From positions 1 through 35,415 of the forward strand of contig CALDSX010000002.1 in assembly GCA_937924445.1 (NCBI GenBank): a stretch of DNA of 35,415 nucleotides. Direction: 5' to 3'. Made by a program: the position numbers and the translations under genes. Source of the DNA: an uncultured Chthoniobacterales bacterium (GTDB taxonomy: Bacteria > Verrucomicrobiota > Verrucomicrobiia > Chthoniobacterales > CALDSX01). This document shows positions 1 through 8,854 of the stretch, in pieces (within the stretch, counting starts at the first letter, position 1; each line of letters starts with the position of its first letter). The notes beneath the pieces were generated by a model that was not told the DNA's origin, searched no databases, and saw nothing but the letters and a program-made list of their open reading frames with translations.

Positions 1-2115
1 TGTAGGCGTTGGCGCAGGAGGGGGGGGAGGAGTCGCCGTAGTGATTTTCTTATCACGAGACTCGGGAGCTGGTTGGGTGGTTGTGTTTGTGCTGCGGGAA
101 AAGATCAGTCCGGCAACGATAAAACCAAAGCCGACGAGCGCAGTAAGGCCCAAAATTAGGGGAATGAGTAAAGGACTTTGGGACGGTGGCTTGGGAGCGG
201 GTTTAGTTTTTTTGGGGACAGGTGCTGTGGATTTTGAGCTGGGTTGAATGCTCTGAGCCACACTGGTCAGTGGGGAGCCCGAGCGAGAAAGACTGGCAGC
301 GGGTCCGAGGGCGACAGAGATATTGCTGCTACGAAGGAGGCTGCCAACTCGGGATCCTCCAGTTGTGGGCGTGCCCGCTGTTGTCTGTGGTGTGGAGCCG
401 GGAACGACACCCTCGGCCTCGCAGAGCTGTGCGAGAAGCTCGCTGCAGGAGATCGGCTTGGCGTCGTCGAGAACAGCTCGGGAAAGAATGCGATTTCCTT
501 CTTCGCTAAGTGCTGAAACCGTAACAAAGGCTTCGGGAGCAATCCGGGCGGCAGTGTTGAGGGCGCGCCCGGAAACGAAGCGGTAAATAAGAGCGGCAAA
601 AGCTTGAGAGGAGTGGCTTTTGCCAGACTCCACGATCATCGTCGCGCTAGAGTGTGCATCGAAGTTGGCATTTTCATTTGGGGCGACCTCGACGAGTGCG
701 GGAAGGATGAGTATGCAAGCCTCCGAAGAGCTGAAACCCTCCTGGTGCAGTTGTGAGTTGGCAATGAGCGCATGGGGGGTAATGTCTACAGGCGGCAGGC
801 CAACGCTTTCAAGGGTATCAAGGGTGGTAGCGAGTGACGAAAGTTGCGAAAGACAGGTCTTAAAGGAGATGTCGCCTGAAGATTTAAGAACATCGAGCAA
901 AGGAACGCCAGGTTCGCGGGCGAACACAGCAGCGCAGCCGTCATCGGCAGAGACAAGCCTCAGCAGTGAAAGGAGATTCTTAGATTCGATTTTCTGAAGT
1001 GCTTGGGCGTGTTTTTGAATGCGCTCGCGATCCTCCGCTGAAGCAACGTTTGATTGGTCAAAAACGAGAAGCCACACCTTTTGACGATTGGCAGCGTCCT
1101 CAGCAGGAGCGATGGTGCCACCCGACGTTCTTTCGATAGGCCCTTCGATTTTGAACTGCGAGAGAAGGTTGCCTGCAAATGGTTCCCACCTGATCGCAAG
1201 ATTCTGTGGAGTGGAAGCCGTCGTATGGCTGTCCGCAATTTCTATTTCGTCAAGTTGCTTGAGAATTTCGCGCAAGTTTGCCGGTCTTCGAGAACGCTCT
1301 TTTGCGAGCATCGAGGCGAGAAGCCCGTGCAGAGATGGTGGGAGCGTGGTTGGCAATTGTTCGGCGTAATCTGCGGCGCGGAGACGTTCGGCAACTACGT
1401 GTGCCGTAGAGCCGCTTATGGGTGGTTTGCCGGTAATAAGGAACCACCACGTCATGCCGAGCGAAAAAATGTCGCTGCGTTCGTCTAGCACTTCCTCTCG
1501 GAGTTGCTCGGGGCTTGCAAACAGAGGTGTTCCGGCAAACTGGGCGGTTTCTGTGACGGGGTCTTGGGTCTCGCCCGAGTCTGAGCGACGCGTTGCGATG
1601 AATTCTTTAACGAGACCAAAATCTATCAACTTGACAGTGAGGGGCTGTTCTTCGCTGGCAAAGAGAAAATTAGATGGCTTTAGATCCCGGTGTAGGAAGC
1701 CCCGCTCATGGGCACAAAGAAGTGCACTGGCGCTTTGGCGAAACAGAGGAAGTGCAGCTTCAATTCCAAATGCTCCGTGTTTGTCAATGTAACGTTGGAG
1801 GTCGCCCCCGCCGCAGAATTCCATAGCGTAATAGAGTGCTCCTTCGCTTTCCCCAAAATCCAGAATGATCGCGATGTGAGGATGTCTCAGTTGAGCTGCG
1901 GAACGTGCCTCACGCAGAAACTGTGTCCGAGCTTTATCGAAGGAGTCGGGGTTTGGCCGGATGATTTTAAGGGCCGCCTCAGTGCCGAGAAAAATGTGAC
2001 GTGCCTTGTACGTTTTGCCGAACGACCCCTCCCCGAGAAGAATCGGCGTGCCGTCGGGGCCCTGTAAAACCTCGTGATTTCCAAATCGAAAAATTTGCGG
2101 AGTTGCTGATGACAT
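1..2115 (-). CDS. Membrane-anchored Ser/Thr protein kinase (PknB/Hanks type), C-terminus cut by window edge
   Basis: Reading the minus strand from ATG at 2115 gives 705 open codons running off position 1. The kinase domain has the glycine loop GEGSFG (about residues 28-33), the ATP lysine in ALKII (K50), the catalytic loop HRDLKPSN (H142), DFG (165-167) and an SPE variant of the APE motif near 195. The order and spacing are those of bacterial Hanks-type kinases. A long linker of unknown fold (about 290-640) follows, turning Pro/Ser/Lys-rich before one hydrophobic segment at about 648-672. A Thr/Pro-rich stretch after it would lie outside the cytoplasm, so this is a single-pass membrane kinase whose outer part is not in the window. 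AGGGGG lies about 8 bases upstream of the start. It is transcribed divergently from the DGR target gene. The substrate is unknown. Confidence 0.93.
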   Translation of the reverse strand, partial: MSSATPQIFRFGNHEVLQGPDGTPILLGEGSFGKTYKARHIFLGTEAALKIIRPNPDSFDKARTQFLREARSAAQLRHPHIAIILDFGESEGALYYAMEFCGGGDLQRYIDKHGAFGIEAALPLFRQSASALLCAHERGFLHRDLKPSNFLFASEEQPLTVKLIDFGLVKEFIATRRSDSGETQDPVTETAQFAGTPLFASPEQLREEVLDERSDIFSLGMTWWFLITGKPPISGSTAHVVAERLRAADYAEQLPTTLPPSLHGLLASMLAKERSRRPANLREILKQLDEIEIADSHTTASTPQNLAIRWEPFAGNLLSQFKIEGPIERTSGGTIAPAEDAANRQKVWLLVFDQSNVASAEDRERIQKHAQALQKIESKNLLSLLRLVSADDGCAAVFAREPGVPLLDVLKSSGDISFKTCLSQLSSLATTLDTLESVGLPPVDITPHALIANSQLHQEGFSSSEACILILPALVEVAPNENANFDAHSSATMIVESGKSHSSQAFAALIYRFVSGRALNTAARIAPEAFVTVSALSEEGNRILSRAVLDDAKPISCSELLAQLCEAEGVVPGSTPQTTAGTPTTGGSRVGSLLRSSNISVALGPAASLSRSGSPLTSVAQSIQPSSKSTAPVPKKTKPAPKPPSQSPLLIPLILGLTALVGFGFIVAGLIFSRSTNTTTQPAPESRDKKITTATPPPPPAPTPT

Positions 2116-2426
2116 GAAAATTTCCCCCTGTGAGGCTTTCTTAACCTGTATCGAGACGGACGGCAATGCGATTTCCATAAGGAGAATGCGCTTACTTGTT
2201 TGCGGGTTCAGGGTCTGTTTTACGCCGCATGGAAAGAGAGAGTTCCGATCGCGCTTTGGCCCTCCAGCGTGTATGAAGCTGCAAAAATTGAGGGTATCGT
2301 TCAGTTGGGCACAAAACGAATGTCCATTGTGACGGAATCGTTTCGTTTTTTGACAAAGCTGCCACTTTTTCATTAAAACCGATCCCGACTGAAATCTATG
2401 TCAACAATCCAAATTCCAATGAAAAA
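2116..2426. other. Divergent intergenic region, kinase / DGR target
   Basis: This holds 311 bases between the kinase start and the DGR target start. I see no credible gene. It must carry promoters for both directions. The last 80 bases before the target ATG are AT-rich and show no Shine-Dalgarno sequence. Confidence 0.6.
2350..2378 (+). promoter_or_regulatory. Possible sigma70-like promoter for the DGR target gene
   Basis: A perfect TTGACA (2350-2355) is followed after 17 bases by TTAAAA (2373-2378), a poor match to TATAAT. It sits about 50 bases upstream of the target ATG. The -35 match is good and the -10 weak, so this is tentative. Confidence 0.3.
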
Positions 2427-3449
2427 ATGAAATCGGCCGCAGCTCTTGGGCTGGCACTGGGAATGATGGCAATCGGAACCGCACAAGCCCAGATCACCAT
2501 CGATACAGTGATGGTTGGGGACGCGGGTAATGCGAATGACTCGACGGGCTACGGCGCGGTCTCCTACGAATACGCCATCGGCAAATACGAGGTGACCCTG
2601 ACGCAATACACGGCGTTCTTGAACGCGGTGGCGGCGACAGACACCTACAGCCTCTACAACACGAGCACGGCGACGAACCTGAACATTGCCGGGATTCAGC
2701 GGAGTGGGAGCCCTGGAAGCTACACCTATTCCGTGATCGGGAGTGGGAATCGGCCGGTGAAATATGTGGGCTGGTTCGACGCGGCGCGGTTTTCGAACTG
2801 GCTGACTAACGGACAGCCGACCGGGGCGCAGGGCAACGCGACGACGGAGAATGGCGCCTACTCGCTTTTTGGAGCGACGAGCGGGGTGGGCTACACGAAG
2901 AACGCGATCAACCCAAACACCGGGATGGCGCCGACGTGGTGGATCCCGAGCGAGGATGAGTGGTATAAGGCAGCCTATTATCAACCTGCCTCGGCAGGCG
3001 GGGATGTTGACGACTACTGGCTGTATCCGACAGGCAGTAACACGATCGCTGGTAACACGATCGGAGCGTCACCCAACCAGGCGAACTACAACGACGGGGA
3101 TTATTCCGTGACGCAGAGTTCAGCCTACAGCGCGAGCCAGAATTACTTGACCGATGGAGGAGCCTTCAGCAATTCGGCGAGTTTCTATGGGACATTTGAC
3201 CAAGGCGGGAATGTCTGGGAATGGAATGATGCCGTGATTGCCGGTTCGTCCCGTGGCCTCCGCGGGGGCTCTTGGGGCGGCGGCGACGACGGCCTGCTGT
3301 CCTCCGGCCGCCTCAGCGACGATCCCACGCTCGAGTACTTCCGCTTGGGGTTCCGCGTGGCCAGCGTCCCCGAGCCGTCAACAGCAGGGTTGATGTTGAT
3401 GGGAGGAGCAGCGTGGCTGCTCTGGAGGCGCCGTAAGGTTACCCTTTAA
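2427..3449 (+). CDS. DGR target: secreted FGE-sulfatase/C-type-lectin-fold protein with PEP-CTERM anchor
   Basis: The product is 340 residues. An N-terminal signal peptide ends at about residue 21 (AQA). An FGE-sulfatase (SUMF1-like, C-type lectin fold) domain spans about 30-312, with WWIPSEDEWYKAAYY, GNVWEWND and RGLRGGSW as family landmarks. A PEP-CTERM sorting signal follows: VPEPST at 314-319, a hydrophobic stretch, then RRRK. There is no cysteine, so it cannot be a catalytic formylglycine-generating enzyme of the cysteine type; a binding or display role is inferred. The variable repeat covers about residues 271-312 and replaces 16 residues of the TR-encoded sequence between 284 and 307. 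PEP-CTERM proteins are normally recognised by exosortase and sent to the cell surface. No gene for that machinery is in the window. It is followed by avd and the RT on the same strand. Confidence 0.93.
   Translation: MKSAAALGLALGMMAIGTAQAQITIDTVMVGDAGNANDSTGYGAVSYEYAIGKYEVTLTQYTAFLNAVAATDTYSLYNTSTATNLNIAGIQRSGSPGSYTYSVIGSGNRPVKYVGWFDAARFSNWLTNGQPTGAQGNATTENGAYSLFGATSGVGYTKNAINPNTGMAPTWWIPSEDEWYKAAYYQPASAGGDVDDYWLYPTGSNTIAGNTIGASPNQANYNDGDYSVTQSSAYSASQNYLTDGGAFSNSASFYGTFDQGGNVWEWNDAVIAGSSRGLRGGSWGGGDDGLLSSGRLSDDPTLEYFRLGFRVASVPEPSTAGLMLMGGAAWLLWRRRKVTL
3237..3364 (+). repeat. DGR variable repeat (VR)
   Basis: It aligns without gaps to TR at 4840-4967 (offset 1603). In the core (3271-3364) there are 24 differences at TR adenines (14 to G, 7 to T, 3 to C) and only one at another base (3283, C in TR). 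Nine of the 33 core adenines are unchanged. Three further non-adenine differences (3250, 3254, 3261) lie in the 5' flank, as drift or outside the mutagenised part. The 3' end, GC-rich and without differences (about 3346-3364), is where the initiation-of-mutagenic-homology site would be expected. Confidence 0.95.
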
Positions 3450-3464
3450 CCTTTAACTCTTTTA

Positions 3465-3510
3465 CCCTTTGCCTGTCTGGTGGAGGACAAATCTGCCAGA
3501 CAGGCAAGGG
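3465..3510. repeat. Long inverted repeat 100 bases downstream of VR
   Basis: TTGCCTGTCTGG (3469-3480) is the exact reverse complement of CCAGACAGGCAA (3496-3507), with a 15-base loop. Pairing extends outward to 3465 and 3510 with one bulged T. No U-tract follows, so it is not a classical terminator. A DNA hairpin just past VR is known to promote homing in some DGRs, but there it is shorter and closer; the role here is inferred. Confidence 0.75.
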
Positions 3511-3517
3511 AAAAAGG

Positions 3518-3535
3518 GACCCCGCGAAGCGGGTC
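3518..3535. repeat. Short GC-rich hairpin with GAA loop, upstream of avd
   Basis: GACCCCGC (3518-3525) pairs with GCGGGTC (3529-3535) with one bulged C and a GAA loop. AAAATTTTT follows at once. It could be a terminator for the target gene or a second cruciform-type element of the DGR. Confidence 0.5.
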
Positions 3536-3593
3536 GGAAAATTTTTCGCAAAATCGAGGGTCTGCTGGTGCGCCGCCCGAGGTCCCGGTTGTT

Positions 3594-3893
3594 TTGGTGA
3601 AGTGGTATGACTACGCGAAGTGGGTGCTGGAGCGGGTGGAGAGCTTCCCGAAGAACCAACGGTATGTGCTGGGTCAGCGGCTGAGCAATCAAGCCATGGA
3701 AGTTCTCGAAATGCTGGTGGAAGCCGCCTACAGCCGGGAGAAGCTCAGCCTGCTGACCACGATAAACCGGAAGATGGAGGTGGTGCGGTGGGCGGTGAGG
3801 ATGTGCAAGGATCGGAACCTGCTGAGCGCCTCGCAGTTCACGCACAGTGCCCGCTGCCTGAACGAATGCGGGAAAATGGTGGGCGGCTGGTGA
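3594..3893 (+). CDS. avd: DGR accessory variability determinant (Avd), four-helix-bundle protein
   Basis: The product is about 99 residues from the TTG at 3594. The sequence runs VKWYDYAKWVLERVESFPKN, then helices with RLSNQAMEVLEMLVEAAYSR, a basic RKMEVVRW helix and an ending NECGKMVGGW. This is the typical Avd/S23-like helical-bundle pattern. In studied DGRs Avd binds the RT and TR RNA and is needed for mutagenic cDNA synthesis. The start is uncertain: the frame is open to a GTG at 3480, but that lies inside the inverted repeat and the added residues are not family-like. GAGG at 3579-3582 favours TTG 3594 or GTG 3597. The RT start is 26 bases downstream. Confidence 0.85.
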   Translation: MVKWYDYAKWVLERVESFPKNQRYVLGQRLSNQAMEVLEMLVEAAYSREKLSLLTTINRKMEVVRWAVRMCKDRNLLSASQFTHSARCLNECGKMVGGW

Positions 3894-3919
3894 AAGGCGG
3901 AGGGGAAGAAGCAGACACC

Positions 3920-4811
3920 ATGAAAACCCACCACCATCTCTGGGAGCAGGTCGTCTCACCGGAAAATCTGATGGGTGCGGCGACGGATGCGATTCGGGGA
4001 AAGAGGTGCCGGAGTTCGGCAGCGCGGTTCTTCAGCCACTGGGAGACGGAAGTCTGGCGTTTGCATGGCAAGCTGGTTTCCGGCGAATACCAGCCCGGTG
4101 CCTACACGCATATCAAGATTTACGAGCCGAAGGAGCGGGTGGTGGCGGCGGCACCATTCCGGGACCGGGTGGTGCACTACGCGCTGGTGCGGGTGCTCCA
4201 GCCCATCTTCGAACCGCGCTTCCTCGAGGACAGCTATGCCTGACGACCCGGCAAAGGGCACCCATGCAGGGATGCGCCGGGCGGCAGAGTTTGCCCGGAG
4301 GTTCTCATGCGCGATGAAGTGCGACATCCGTCGGTATTTTCCAAGCATTGACCACGAAATCCTCCTTGATCGGATCGGGCGGGTGATCGCCGATCCCGGT
4401 GTGCTCTGGCTGGCCCGCACGATCCTCTCCACCCACCGGGACAGCACAAGGCGTGTCTATGGGGAATCGCTCTTCGATTGTCGCGAGTCGGGCTGCGGCC
4501 TGCCCATTGGCAAACTCACCAGCCAGTTCTTCGCCAACATCCACCTGGACGGGTTCGACCACTTTGTGAAGCAGACGCTGCGGGTCAAAGGCTATGTGCG
4601 CAATGTGGATGATTTTCTGCTCTTCGGCCTCGACCGCCCAACCGTGCGGGCATGGGGCGAGGCGGCGCGGGAATATTTGCAGCAGATGCGGCTGGAGATT
4701 CATCCCAACAAATACCGCCTGTGCCACTCCAAGCAGGGCGTGGATTTCTGCGGGTTCGTCGTGCGCTCGGACGGGCGCATCCGCATTCGCCGGGAGGTGT
4801 TGGCCGCTTGA
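3920..4811 (+). pseudogene. DGR-type reverse transcriptase, disrupted and truncated
   Basis: The first part (3920-4243, ATG start) encodes 107 residues ending FEPRFLEDSYA then TGA. The second part continues from about 4244 in the next frame, with KGTHAGMRRA, the DIRRYFPSID polymerase motif, GLPIGKLTSQ (the GxxxSQ motif typical of DGR RTs), NVDDFLLFG and VDFCGFVV. One base too many between GCC (4238-4240) and ACC (4259-4261) breaks the frame. It is either one inserted base or a TGC-to-TGA change plus an insertion. The catalytic YxDD reads NVDD (AAT where TAT is expected), although both aspartates remain. The protein ends about 12 residues after VDFCGFVV, so the thumb region (commonly 60-100 residues) is missing. 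A single sequencing error could explain the frame break but not the other two defects. It probably gives no active enzyme by itself. Confidence 0.88.
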
Positions 4812-4839
4812 ATAGAAGCCTCGGGTGGCGGGCGGCCGA

Positions 4840-4967
4840 ATTGCCGGTTCGTTCCGGGGCCTCTGCGGGGGCTCTTGGAACAACACCGACAACAACCTGC
4901 AGTCCTCCAACCACAACAACAACGATCCCACGAACGAGAACAACAACATGGGGTTCCGCGTGGCCAG
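4840..4967 (+). repeat. DGR template repeat (TR)
   Basis: It lies 28 bases after the RT stop, in the same orientation as VR. Its core is a run of AAC and other adenine-containing codons, reading GGSWNNTDNNLQSS, then Asn-rich, then MGFRVAR in the VR frame. This is the usual design that lets adenine mutagenesis reach many residues while avoiding stop codons. It ends in the GC-rich TGGGGTTCCGCGTGGCCAG shared with VR. It should be transcribed as RNA and copied by the RT with errors at adenines. The order target-avd-RT-TR is one of the known DGR arrangements. Confidence 0.94.
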
Positions 4968-5527: not shown

Positions 5528-6826
5528 ATGCAAACTCCCATAGTTTCCACAGTCGCTGAGGATACTGGTGATAACGGAACGCTTTCGCAGGAGCAAATCG
5601 ATTCGGTGTTGGATCGGTTTGTTTCCGAGGCGGATCTCGGGGGAGAACGCGTTTTGCTTGTCATTCCCGATTCGACTCGCACTGCACCCGTGGGGCAATT
5701 GTTTAAAGGGCTACACCGTCGTCTTTCAAGGCGTGTGAAAGCACTTGACGTGATTGTGGCGCTCGGAACGCATCCGCCAATGTCGGATGCTGCAATTAAT
5801 CATAGGCTTGAAATCACCAGCGCCGAACGTGCGAAGCGCTACTGTGACGTGCAGATTTTTAATCACACATGGGACCAGCCCGATACTCTTATGGAGATTG
5901 GACGAATTCCGGCGGAGGAAATCACCATGCTCTCCGGTGGGCTTTTTTCGATGGAGGTGCCAGTCCACATTAACAAGCGCGTTGCGGACTACAGTGTCCT
6001 TATTGTGATCGGGCCCGTTTTCCCTCACGAAGTGGTCGGCTTTTCCGGTGGTAACAAATATTTTTTTCCAGGTATCGCCGGCCCGGATGTTCTGAACTTT
6101 TTTCACTGGCTTGGTGCGATTGTCACCAACCCCATGATCATAGGGAATAAATGGACTCCGGTCCGCAAAGTGGTGGACCGCGCTGCCTCATTTATCAAGG
6201 CGCGTCGCCTCTGTCTCGCCGCAGTGGTGGATGACAAGCGTTTTGCGGGACTCTACGCAGGGACGACAGAATCAGCATGGGACGCTGCTAGCGACCTTTC
6301 CGCCCAACTACACATAGAACGCAAAGCGAAGCCTTTTGTGCGTGTGCTTTCGTGTGCGCCGCCGATGTATGACGAGCTTTGGGTTGCCGGCAAGTGCATG
6401 TACAAATTGGAGCCGGTTGTGGCCGACGGGGGCGAGTTGATCATTTATGCCCCTCATCTGCACGAGATTTCCAAGGTGCACGGCCATCTCATTCGACGAA
6501 TTGGGTATCATTGTCGCGATTATTTCCTCGCGCAGTGGGAGCGATTTAGGAACGAGCCTTGGGGAGTGCTTGCCCACTCCACGCATGTTCGCGGAATTGG
6601 AACGTTTCTGGATGGAGTGGAACATCCGAGGATCCAGGTCACCCTTGCGTCGCAGATCGAAGAGCGGGTTTGCTGCGAGATCAATCTCGGCTACCTTGAC
6701 CCAAACAAAATTGACAAAGAGGAATTCACTGATCGTGAGGAAGAAGGAGTGTTAATCGTTACCAAAGCCGGTGAGCGGCTTTTTCATCTTCAAACACCTC
6801 CGAGCTGGGCTGGGGGTCGTGTGTAA
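5528..6826 (+). CDS. LarA-like nickel-pincer racemase/epimerase family protein (DUF2088)
   Basis: The product is 432 residues, the usual LarA length. Lactate racemase LarA interconverts D- and L-lactate with a nickel-pincer nucleotide bound to a lysine; homologues act on other 2-hydroxy acids. DSTRTAP (48-54) and ALGTHPPM (78-85) match the N-terminal domain. NH at 112-113 corresponds to the catalytic H108. FPHEVVGFSGGNKYFFPG places H167, K177 and H193 with spacings of 10 and 16, the same as LarA H174, K184 and H200, so the cofactor site looks complete. The substrate cannot be told from sequence. No larB, larC or larE cofactor genes are in the window. An M29 aminopeptidase follows 64 bases downstream. 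Confidence 0.85.
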   Translation: MQTPIVSTVAEDTGDNGTLSQEQIDSVLDRFVSEADLGGERVLLVIPDSTRTAPVGQLFKGLHRRLSRRVKALDVIVALGTHPPMSDAAINHRLEITSAERAKRYCDVQIFNHTWDQPDTLMEIGRIPAEEITMLSGGLFSMEVPVHINKRVADYSVLIVIGPVFPHEVVGFSGGNKYFFPGIAGPDVLNFFHWLGAIVTNPMIIGNKWTPVRKVVDRAASFIKARRLCLAAVVDDKRFAGLYAGTTESAWDAASDLSAQLHIERKAKPFVRVLSCAPPMYDELWVAGKCMYKLEPVVADGGELIIYAPHLHEISKVHGHLIRRIGYHCRDYFLAQWERFRNEPWGVLAHSTHVRGIGTFLDGVEHPRIQVTLASQIEERVCCEINLGYLDPNKIDKEEFTDREEEGVLIVTKAGERLFHLQTPPSWAGGRV

Positions 6827-6890
6827 GAATCGGTTCGCACGCGACGCAACGCCAGGTTGCAGTCAATTACCTTTGTGTTAGGCATTACGA

Positions 6891-8081
6891 ATGTCAGATC
6901 CTCGATACGAGCTCCTTGCCAAACGTCTGCTCAGCCACTCCGTTTCCCTGCGTCGCGGTGACAGCATTCTATTCGATCTGTTCGATATCCCAGACGAAAT
7001 GGCTTGTGCGCTTATCAGCGAAACGTCGCGGAGAGGCGGCTACCCGTTCCTTAATCTCCGGCGGGGAAGGATTGACCGAAAATTGCTCCTAGGGATGGAC
7101 GAGGATGCTCTTTCCATTGCCGCTGATGTTGAACTCTACCGGATGAAGAAGATGCAGGCTTATATCGCGATTCGCGGCAGCCACAACATCACTGAAATGT
7201 CGGACGTTCCGACCGCCAAATCCAAGCTTGTTGCACAAATGATGCGGCCGGTGACAGATTACCGCGTCAATCATACGCGCTGGTGTGTTTTGCGCTGGCC
7301 GACCCCATCAATGGCCCAACAGGCCGGGATGAGCACAGAAGCTTTTGAGGATTTTTTCTTTGAAGTCAGCACTATGGACTACTCGCTGTTCAACAAGGGT
7401 ATGGCAGCTCTTGTGAGAATGATGAGTGCGGCCGAAGAGGTCCACATCGAAGGTCCGGGAACAGATCTGCGTTTTAGCCTGGCAGGCATCCCCGCTGTCG
7501 GTTGTGGCGGAGCGCACAACATTCCAGATGGGGAAGTTTTTTCCTGCCCAGTTAAAACCTCTGTCGAGGGGTATGTGACATTCAACACCCCGACGATCTA
7601 CCAAGGACATGCACTCGACAATGTGCGGCTGGAGTTTTCCAAGGGACGCATCGTCCAGGCGTCCGGATCCGATAGCGAGAAAGTCAACTCTATTCTTGAC
7701 TCTGACGAGGGAGCGCGTTTCATCGGGGAGTTCGCACTGGGCTTTAATCCCTTCATCAGGCGCCCGATGCGTGATATTTTGTTCGACGAAAAGATTGCCG
7801 GCTCCTTTCATTTTACTCCAGGACAAGCTTACGAAAGCGCCGATAACGGAAACCGTAGCCAGGTTCATTGGGATCTTGTCTGCATACAAACCCCGGAGTA
7901 TGGCGGCGGCACCATTCGCTTTGATGGAAAACTGATTCGTAAAGACGGTCTTTTTACCCATCCATCACTGGAGGTGTTGAATCCTAAAAATCTATTGGCT
8001 GCCGCTGCGGCCCGTGAGGCAAACAGCAAATTCTCCGCAGACGGTCGTAAGCGGAAAGGTTCAAAACCGGCAAGGCTGTGA
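6891..8081 (+). CDS. M29-family aminopeptidase (AmpS/PepS-like)
   Basis: The product is 396 residues. M29 enzymes are co-catalytic two-metal aminopeptidases, usually cytoplasmic; no signal peptide is seen. Expected ligands are present in order: E215 in NIPDGEVF, E280 in IGEFALG, H307 in GSFHFTPG, H326 and D328 in VHWDLV. The C-terminus is a short basic tail. The stop overlaps the next start (TGATG at 8079-8083), so the aminopeptidase and the L,D-transpeptidase are almost certainly co-translated. Placement beside a peptidoglycan transpeptidase and a racemase-like protein suggests a role in cell-wall peptide turnover, which is inference only. Confidence 0.9.
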
Positions 8082-8854
8082 TGAGTGGGATGACTTCGGG
8101 ATTAGGAGTCGTGGCGTTGGCGTTGCTGCCCTGGACTTCTGTTTTGGCCTCAGGTCCGCGGCAAATGGTTGTCTCTGTAGCCCCCGATTGGAACTCGCAA
8201 AGGGGACATCTGCGTCTGTTCGATCTGTCTGAAGAGGGGCGCTGGATCCCGGTCTCTCCACACATCCCGGTTTTGTTCGGCAAAAATGGTCTCGCCTGGG
8301 GGCGTGGGATTATGTCTGGCCGTGTGCCTCCTCTTTTCAAAACGGAGGGTGACGGACGTTCTCCAGCCGGGATGTTCCGTATAGGAAAAATTTATACTGC
8401 TGACGCCTCACTCCCAATCGGGGCAAATTATCCTTTTGTGCGTATCGGAGAGAGGGATGCCTGGATAGACGATGTCGAGCATCCTCTCTACAATCAACAT
8501 GTCGTTATTCAAGACCCGCACAATCCACCGCCCTGGTTCGAAAAACAGCGGATGAAGACCGGCGATTTTGCTTACCGCTGGCTTGTGGAAATACGCCACA
8601 ACCGCGACCCAATCGTTAGGGGTGCCGGGAGTGCGATATTTTTTCATATTCGCCGTGGCGAAACCCGTCCGACTCATGGTTGCACCACAATGGCGGAGGA
8701 AGATTTGGCTGCCATGATCCGGTGGCTACGCCCAGAGGCGACACCTGTTTATGTTCTGTTGCCGGTGCGCGAATATCAGGCGTTATGGCGCAAATGGCAA
8801 CTGCCCCCTCCTGACCTCGTCATTCCGGCCCGCAACGCTATGACCGCACGATGA
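8081..8854 (+). CDS. Exported L,D-transpeptidase/YkuD-type catalytic domain protein
   Basis: The product is 257 residues from ATG 8081. A hydrophobic N-terminus (about 8-24, ending VLASG) looks like a signal peptide. The catalytic signature is H189 followed by RPTHGCTTM with C201, the YkuD HX(n)HGC pattern. The upstream KTEGDGRSPAGMFRIG is the typical beta-strand region of the COG3786 branch. Such enzymes cross-link peptidoglycan by 3-3 bonds, attach proteins to it, or act as carboxypeptidases in the periplasm. A GTG at 8078 is a possible but less likely start. The next gene is convergent. Confidence 0.9.
   Translation: MSGMTSGLGVVALALLPWTSVLASGPRQMVVSVAPDWNSQRGHLRLFDLSEEGRWIPVSPHIPVLFGKNGLAWGRGIMSGRVPPLFKTEGDGRSPAGMFRIGKIYTADASLPIGANYPFVRIGERDAWIDDVEHPLYNQHVVIQDPHNPPPWFEKQRMKTGDFAYRWLVEIRHNRDPIVRGAGSAIFFHIRRGETRPTHGCTTMAEEDLAAMIRWLRPEATPVYVLLPVREYQALWRKWQLPPPDLVIPARNAMTAR

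What the first reader, a model, noticed from the sequence alone, without database searches (positions are those of the whole stretch)
2427..4967. Diversity-generating retroelement with target, avd, RT and TR
Seen: two repeats (VR 3237-3364, TR 4840-4967), 24 of 28 differences at TR adenines, changed to G, T and C. Seen: a RT with the GxxxSQ motif and an Avd-like gene between them. Known: this combination defines DGRs, which rewrite codons of a lectin-fold protein by error-prone reverse transcription. This is the main accessory system of the window.
Basis: partly seen in the sequence, partly recalled or inferred. Interest (0 to 1): 0.9.

Follow-up and report, generated by a model that had tools for sequence, protein, structure and literature searches.

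The report
Recently dead protein-diversifying retroelement
An uncultured bacterium carries a complete-looking cassette for rewriting one of its own surface-type proteins, but the copying enzyme is broken in several places, so the cassette looks like a fresh fossil whose last rewritten protein is still kept.

Summary
In detail: VR 3237-3364 and TR 4840-4967 differ at 28 of 128 sites, 24 at TR adenines, with an avd gene and DGR-type RT sequence between them. The implied working system does not hold. The RT is not one gene: it has a premature TGA and a one-base length change, lacks 48 codons near its C-terminus, and has lost the YxDD tyrosine and the IGN asparagine kept by 79/79 and 80/80 relatives. 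Against relatives' TRs, two lineage-specific TR changes were copied into the VR, but three others were not and a fourth is ambiguous: active in this lineage, then silent. The target survives: an FGE-type lectin protein whose best solved match is the Treponema DGR variable protein. A PEP-CTERM sorting motif follows its VR, as in intact relatives L015 and L016 but in only 4 of 68 surveyed loci. In a related element, two contigs differ at 24 columns, all inside the VR. Paralogues, some in genomes with no RT match, keep the AAC-to-NNC footprint of past rewriting. Verdict: a recently dead member of a PEP-CTERM-linked DGR group.

The parts
2427..3449 (+). Target gene, 340 aa: hydrophobic N-terminus that looks like a signal peptide (by eye), FGE-sulfatase domain, VR, PEP-CTERM tail
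   Evidence: Pfam FGE-sulfatase 66.6 bits (cut-off 23.3) and PEP-CTERM 26 bits (cut-off 20.7); model pLDDT 75.9, best PDB match 2y3c
3237..3364 (+). Variable repeat (VR)
   Evidence: 12 of 12 TR AAC codons changed at base 1 or 2, all still ending in C
3363..3434 (+). PEP-CTERM sorting motif directly after the VR
   Evidence: 3 exosortase matches in the same genome
3465..3512 (.). Strong hairpin between target stop and avd; role unknown
   Evidence: z -5.0 as single-stranded DNA
3480..3893 (+). avd accessory gene, open frame 137 aa; the conserved part begins near 3591, so the true start may lie later
   Evidence: NF033474 96.6 bits; match 3591-3896
3920..4243 (+). RT, first piece (107 codons), ends at a premature TGA
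4241..4258 (+). Break in the RT: premature TGA and, a few bases on, a one-base length difference from relatives
   Evidence: alignments with L015 and L016 and with the genome's own contig C69
4242..4811 (+). RT, second piece (189 codons), other frame
   Evidence: Pfam RVT_1 42.2 bits (cut-off 29.6)
4506..4526 (+). IGKLTSQ in place of IGNLTSQ (Asn in 80 of 80 relatives)
4602..4613 (+). NVDD in place of YxDD (Tyr in 79 of 79 relatives with the column)
4792..4797 (+). Junction of a 48-codon in-frame loss (C-terminal, thumb part) relative to L015 and L016
4840..4967 (+). Template repeat (TR), with its own later base changes

Best explanation
A diversity-generating retroelement that worked in this lineage and has since died. 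While alive (inferred from known DGR biology) RT and Avd copied TR RNA with errors at adenines and the cDNA replaced the VR of an FGE-type lectin protein. The PEP-CTERM tail (sequence shown, function inferred) would hand that protein to an exosortase for the cell surface or matrix. The RT was then lost by several mutations (shown), the TR began to drift (shown), and the last VR version was frozen in a target gene that stays intact (shown).
For: RT in two frames with premature TGA and a length change, 48 codons missing, Tyr of YxDD and Asn of IGN lost. Only RT over the Pfam cut-off in the genome; the other RT piece, on contig C69, is a fragment. TR changes at sites 12 and 123 are in the VR, those at 14, 25 and 47 are not. 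RT nonsynonymous/synonymous counts 33/27 on the window branch against 15/36 on the L015 branch, p 0.008. Target shows no such excess: 36/41 against 61/50 outside the VR, p 0.30. Related live element: all 24 differing columns between two contigs in the VR.
Against: The assembly is a draft in 127 contigs with no reads at hand, so consensus errors or a strain mixture are not excluded. Outside the two key residues the RT is not worse than an intact one: 55 of 71 conserved columns kept, L015 57. The window RT does not differ significantly from its own target in N/S (p 0.39). About 5% of the genome is missing, so an RT in trans is possible. Sites 12 and 123 are variable third codon positions, and their polarity rests on L015 and L016 agreeing (at site 12 L018 has the window's base).
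Confidence: 0.85

Rival explanations
1. The element is live; the RT breaks are consensus errors, or belong to one strain of a population with intact copies.
For: Draft metagenome-type assembly; the RT is otherwise well kept; both pieces stay open over long stretches.
Against: Five separate changes would all have to be errors, one of them an in-frame loss of 48 codons, and TR changes have not reached the VR.
Confidence: 0.08
2. The cassette's own RT is dead but another RT serves its TR or VR in trans, as complete loci may do for degenerate ones.
For: Thiohalocapsa PB-PSB1 has complete and degenerate loci with matching repeats (PMC10907252, section 5 and passages). About 5% of this genome is missing.
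Against: No other RT over the cut-off in the genome and no further copy of the TR or VR (E up to 1: only these two and a 16-base match). The uncopied TR changes speak against recent use of this TR by any RT.
Confidence: 0.06
3. The RT is made by programmed +1 frameshifting at the TGA and is functional.
For: A stop followed by C is the context of the prfB frameshift (recalled); the shifted product would keep the length of that stretch.
Against: The relatives L015 and L016 and the C69 fragment read this stretch in one frame; the shifted reading loses an Arg found in 80 of 80 relatives; the thumb and catalytic changes remain.
Confidence: 0.01

Closest known systems
DGRs with FGE-type variable proteins (Treponema denticola TvpA, Thermus aquaticus TaqVP)
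   Same: TR/VR with adenine-directed change, avd and RT; best PDB match of the target model is T. denticola variable protein 1 (2y3c); FGE-type lectin fold (PMC6328139, passages).
   Different: There the VR is at the very C-terminus (PMC6328139, passages); here a PEP-CTERM tail follows it, and the RT is broken.
Intact Chthoniobacterales elements L015 (M30B17) and L016 (C. flavus MAG)
   Same: Same gene order target, avd (compared for L015), RT, TR; FGE plus PEP-CTERM target; closest RTs (support 99, quick tree).
   Different: Their RT is one full-length frame with YVDD and IGN.
Degenerate DGR loci and orphan targets (Thiohalocapsa PB-PSB1; T. denticola isolates; Anabaena)
   Same: Machinery lost or pseudogenised while targets remain (PMC10907252, PMC4891356, PMC7517822; passages, and one section of the first).
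   Different: Here all parts are still in place, and the repeats record which TR changes were copied before the loss; no complete partner locus was found in the genome.

Membership tests
Diversity-generating retroelement (anatomy and descent) | TR/VR pair with differences at TR adenines | tested here: met
   24 of 28, p 3e-14
Diversity-generating retroelement (anatomy and descent) | RT of the DGR kind with GxxxSQ | tested here: met
   By descent: 85% and 74% identical to RTs of L015 and L016, which have their own TR/VR; GxxxSQ kept as IGKLTSQ
Diversity-generating retroelement (anatomy and descent) | Accessory protein Avd | tested here: met
   NF033474 96.6 bits over cut-off 80
Diversity-generating retroelement (anatomy and descent) | Target with lectin-type fold holding the VR | tested here: met
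Functional DGR | Complete RT with YxDD | tested here: not met
   Two frames, NVDD, 48 codons missing
Functional DGR | VR diversity among near-identical strains | not testable with these tools
   No close relative or reads of this locus; met in a related element
PEP-CTERM/exosortase substrate | PEP-CTERM motif at the C-terminus and exosortase in the genome | tested here: met
   8 of 9 matches over cut-off; 3 exosortase matches
PEP-CTERM/exosortase substrate | Processing and surface or matrix location | not testable with these tools
   experiment needed

The most novel reading that the evidence does not exclude
In Chthoniobacterales DGRs act as short-lived gene factories: they seed a family of PEP-CTERM-anchored lectin-type proteins, then die, and the once-randomised genes are kept and duplicated. 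Much of the order's PEP-CTERM FGE family would be the product of extinct DGRs, recognisable by an AAC-to-NNC codon footprint where no RT or TR remains.
Probability: 0.35. Interest if true: 0.75.

Novelty: new variant of a known kind. Interest (0 to 1): 0.52.

Why it matters
It is a DGR caught part-way through decay, with an internal record (TR changes copied or not copied into the VR) that orders activity and silence without reads. It links DGR hypervariation to the exosortase sorting pathway; two searches of the held library found no paper that has both a DGR term and PEP-CTERM. The NNC footprint offers a way to find genes once made by DGRs that have vanished, and so to ask whether frozen DGR products become ordinary genes.

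Tried and rejected
Set aside: chance repeat; live element, trans service, programmed frameshift (see rivals). A date from synonymous divergence was considered and dropped, the TR counts being too small.

Led nowhere: first structure model from 5 sequences, pLDDT 32.5, replaced by one from 28. Rfam: 0 matches in the window. PDB sequence search with Avd: 0. PADLOC gave RT-type matches only. The first RT piece has no Pfam match. Six window ORFs against L015, L016, L017, L019, L021 and L104 gave no match, so vertical or horizontal descent of the cassette is open; those loci hold only about 6 kb on a side or less. Paper searches on degenerate DGRs and on anchors returned mostly unrelated listings. 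The careful tree did not finish; the quick one is used.

Limits of the paralogue test: I fetched 20 stretches, chosen by me mainly from the high-scoring rows, plus the genome's own C69. Of these 21, 15 passed a placement score that itself rewards a kept C. Placed by flanks alone, all 21 and no threshold, 174 of 242 changed AAC codons end in C, although L256, L265 and L270 look misplaced by eye. The genes are related, so they are not independent tests. My first RT counts (38/27 against 18/36, p 0.0095) took in codons at the break and after the loss; one search leaves these out (33/27 against 15/36, p 0.0076).

Full report
The observation. The repeats at 3237-3364 and 4840-4967 are in register over 128 nt and differ at 28 sites, 24 of them adenines of the second copy (24 of 34 A, 4 of 94 others, p 3e-14). 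Twelve of twelve AAC codons of the TR are changed in the first or second base in the VR and keep the third-base C. The first copy lies in a 340-aa gene with an FGE-sulfatase domain and a PEP-CTERM motif, followed by avd and RT sequence. The window is a whole contig (C2, 35,415 nt) of a 2.58-Mb assembly in 127 contigs, 94.87% complete. The order is inferred to be Chthoniobacterales: genomes of the same order have contigs whose lengths equal those of records titled Chthoniobacterales M30B17 and Chthoniobacter flavus MAG.

The RT is broken. It reads as 3920-4243 and 4242-4811 in different frames. Against L015 and L016 and the genome's own fragment on contig C69, the break is a premature TGA and, a few bases on, a one-base length difference. 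The window lacks 48 codons that L015 and L016 have before the last five. Aligned with 80 RTs of the genome scan (these include the broken L020 and L021), the second piece reads NVDD where 79 of 79 rows with the column have Tyr, and IGK where 80 of 80 have Asn. Against this, over 71 well-conserved columns the window keeps 55 and the intact L015 57, so decay is not far advanced. Polarised with L016 and leaving out codons at the break, nonsynonymous/synonymous changes in the two pieces are 33/27 on the window branch and 15/36 on the L015 branch (p 0.0076). In the target outside the VR they are 36/41 and 61/50 (p 0.30). The window RT against its own target is not significant (p 0.39).

The repeats record when it died. 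Against the TRs of L015-L018, window TR sites 25, 47 and 74 differ from all four and site 14 from three. The changes at 14, 25 and 47 are not in the VR; 74 is ambiguous, because an A can be rewritten. Two other TR sites where L015 and L016 agree and the window differs, 12 and 123, have the window's base in the VR too. DGRs copy TR to VR only (recalled), so the element was active after the split from L015 and silent later. Of 72 non-A sites identical in the window, L015 and L016 TRs the VR differs at one (site 18). In the intact L016 15 of 15 differences lie at A; L017 21 of 22; L015 24 of 28 and L018 15 of 20, partly because the 128-nt frame reaches past the repeat edge (L015 has 23 of 23 inside its own repeat).

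The second cassette. Contig C69 holds a paralogous FGE gene (PEP-CTERM motif below the cut-off there, 17.0 against 20.7 bits; over it in the genome search), an RT fragment 89.5% identical to window 4154-4428, and, where avd and the start of the RT should be, a 23S_rRNA_IVP-family gene (58.2 bits) between inverted repeats. In the first 6 kb of C69 the best placement of the window TR is the VR-like end of that target, and the whole-genome search finds no other TR or VR copy beyond a 16-base match.

A PEP-CTERM-linked DGR group. Of 80 loci of the genome scan (the best 80 of 158 relatives) a TR/VR pair was found in 68; a PEP-CTERM-type tail after the VR was flagged by pattern in four (L015, L016, L017, L019). 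In 50 of the other 64 the detected VR ends within 8 residues of the end of its frame; the remaining 14 have a shortened or doubtful repeat or frame. L017's target reads only as a 124-residue open frame. Of 41 loci taken from the order and phylum searches (about 1.5 kb of flank each, so some targets are cut off, and a few are not DGRs) only the window, L109 and L110 have it, the last two being L015 and L016 again. Of 53 loci of the viral-contig scan I examined eight: L198-L202 and L204 have a PEP-CTERM-type tail, L203 and L205 do not (no TR/VR pair was found in either). In the tree window, L015 and L016 group (99), and with L017 and L020 (95); L019 lies near but outside, and the PEP label needs two changes (quick tree). 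Pfam scores of the motif in L200 and L258 are below its cut-off (17.1 and 17.7 against 20.7 bits), in L015 above (25.1).

Activity in a relative. L200 and L201 are identical over the 2,998 columns compared; L200 and L202 differ at 24 columns of about 3 kb, all in the 131-nt VR (three are a gap), 22 at TR adenines. Whether these contigs are viral is not known.

The target fold. With 28 sequences the model reaches pLDDT 75.9 and pTM 0.81. Foldseek ranks 2y3c, T. denticola variable protein 1, first (E 1e-9), then CarF, EgtB and formylglycine-generating enzymes. TM-scores are moderate (0.48 by query) and rmsd is high (7.1), so this supports the fold, not its details.

Frozen relatives. Homologues of the target are in 45 of 213 genomes of the order at E up to 1e-30; RT matches at E up to 1e-20 are in 29 of 213. 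Genomes such as G093, G094, G118, G113, G047 and G075 have strong target homologues and are not among those 29; many are incomplete. Of 21 paralogues examined 15 could be placed against a TR. In these 137 of 168 changed AAC-derived codons end in C, against 69.3 expected from the same genes' codon use given the first two bases (0 of 20,000 simulations as high); in seven from genomes without an intact RT match it is 60 of 79 against 35.1 (limits in Tried and rejected). Single genes vary: L266 has 4 of 9, L260 and L261 7 of 11. This is what dead VRs would leave; it does not show that each gene was itself a DGR target rather than the descendant of one.

What is in print. Degenerate DGR loci are known: Thiohalocapsa PB-PSB1 (PMC10907252, passages and section 5), T. 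denticola isolates with targets but no RT or TR (PMC4891356, passages), Anabaena remnants and the idea that the machinery may be removed once a good variant is selected (PMC7517822, passages). PMC8144416 (passages) classes DGRs as active or inactive from reads. No paper of the held library has 'diversity-generating retroelement' (with hyphen; with space) together with 'PEP-CTERM'; most subscription papers are not held.

Noticed in passing
window 3465-3512: Strong hairpin between the target stop and avd (z -5.0 for 3455-3525). Stretches downstream of the VR in L015 and L016 did not fold well, but they were not cut to match, so presence there is not settled.
   Followed up: partly
L104 (own contig C69) 1464-1926: A 23S_rRNA_IVP-family gene between inverted, partly tandem repeats sits where avd and the RT start should be in the second, broken cassette; it looks like an inserted unit.
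   Followed up: partly
L021 (G032 contig C7) and L020: Further RT remnants in relatives: L021 lacks the start and changes frame near YVDD, L020 ends soon after YVDD. G032 also has an intact copy (L016).
   Followed up: partly
G055 (genome of L015): At least ten target homologues in a genome with one RT match; those compared (L251-L255) differ from the TR mostly at A but with more other changes than the cassette's own VR.
   Followed up: partly
window 1-2400: No convincing gene: two frames tested have no Pfam match; part of 2304-2407 resembles the stretch upstream of the C69 target.
   Followed up: partly
window 5528-8854: Downstream genes with lactate racemase N-terminal, M29 peptidase and L,D-transpeptidase domains; they look ordinary.
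   Followed up: partly
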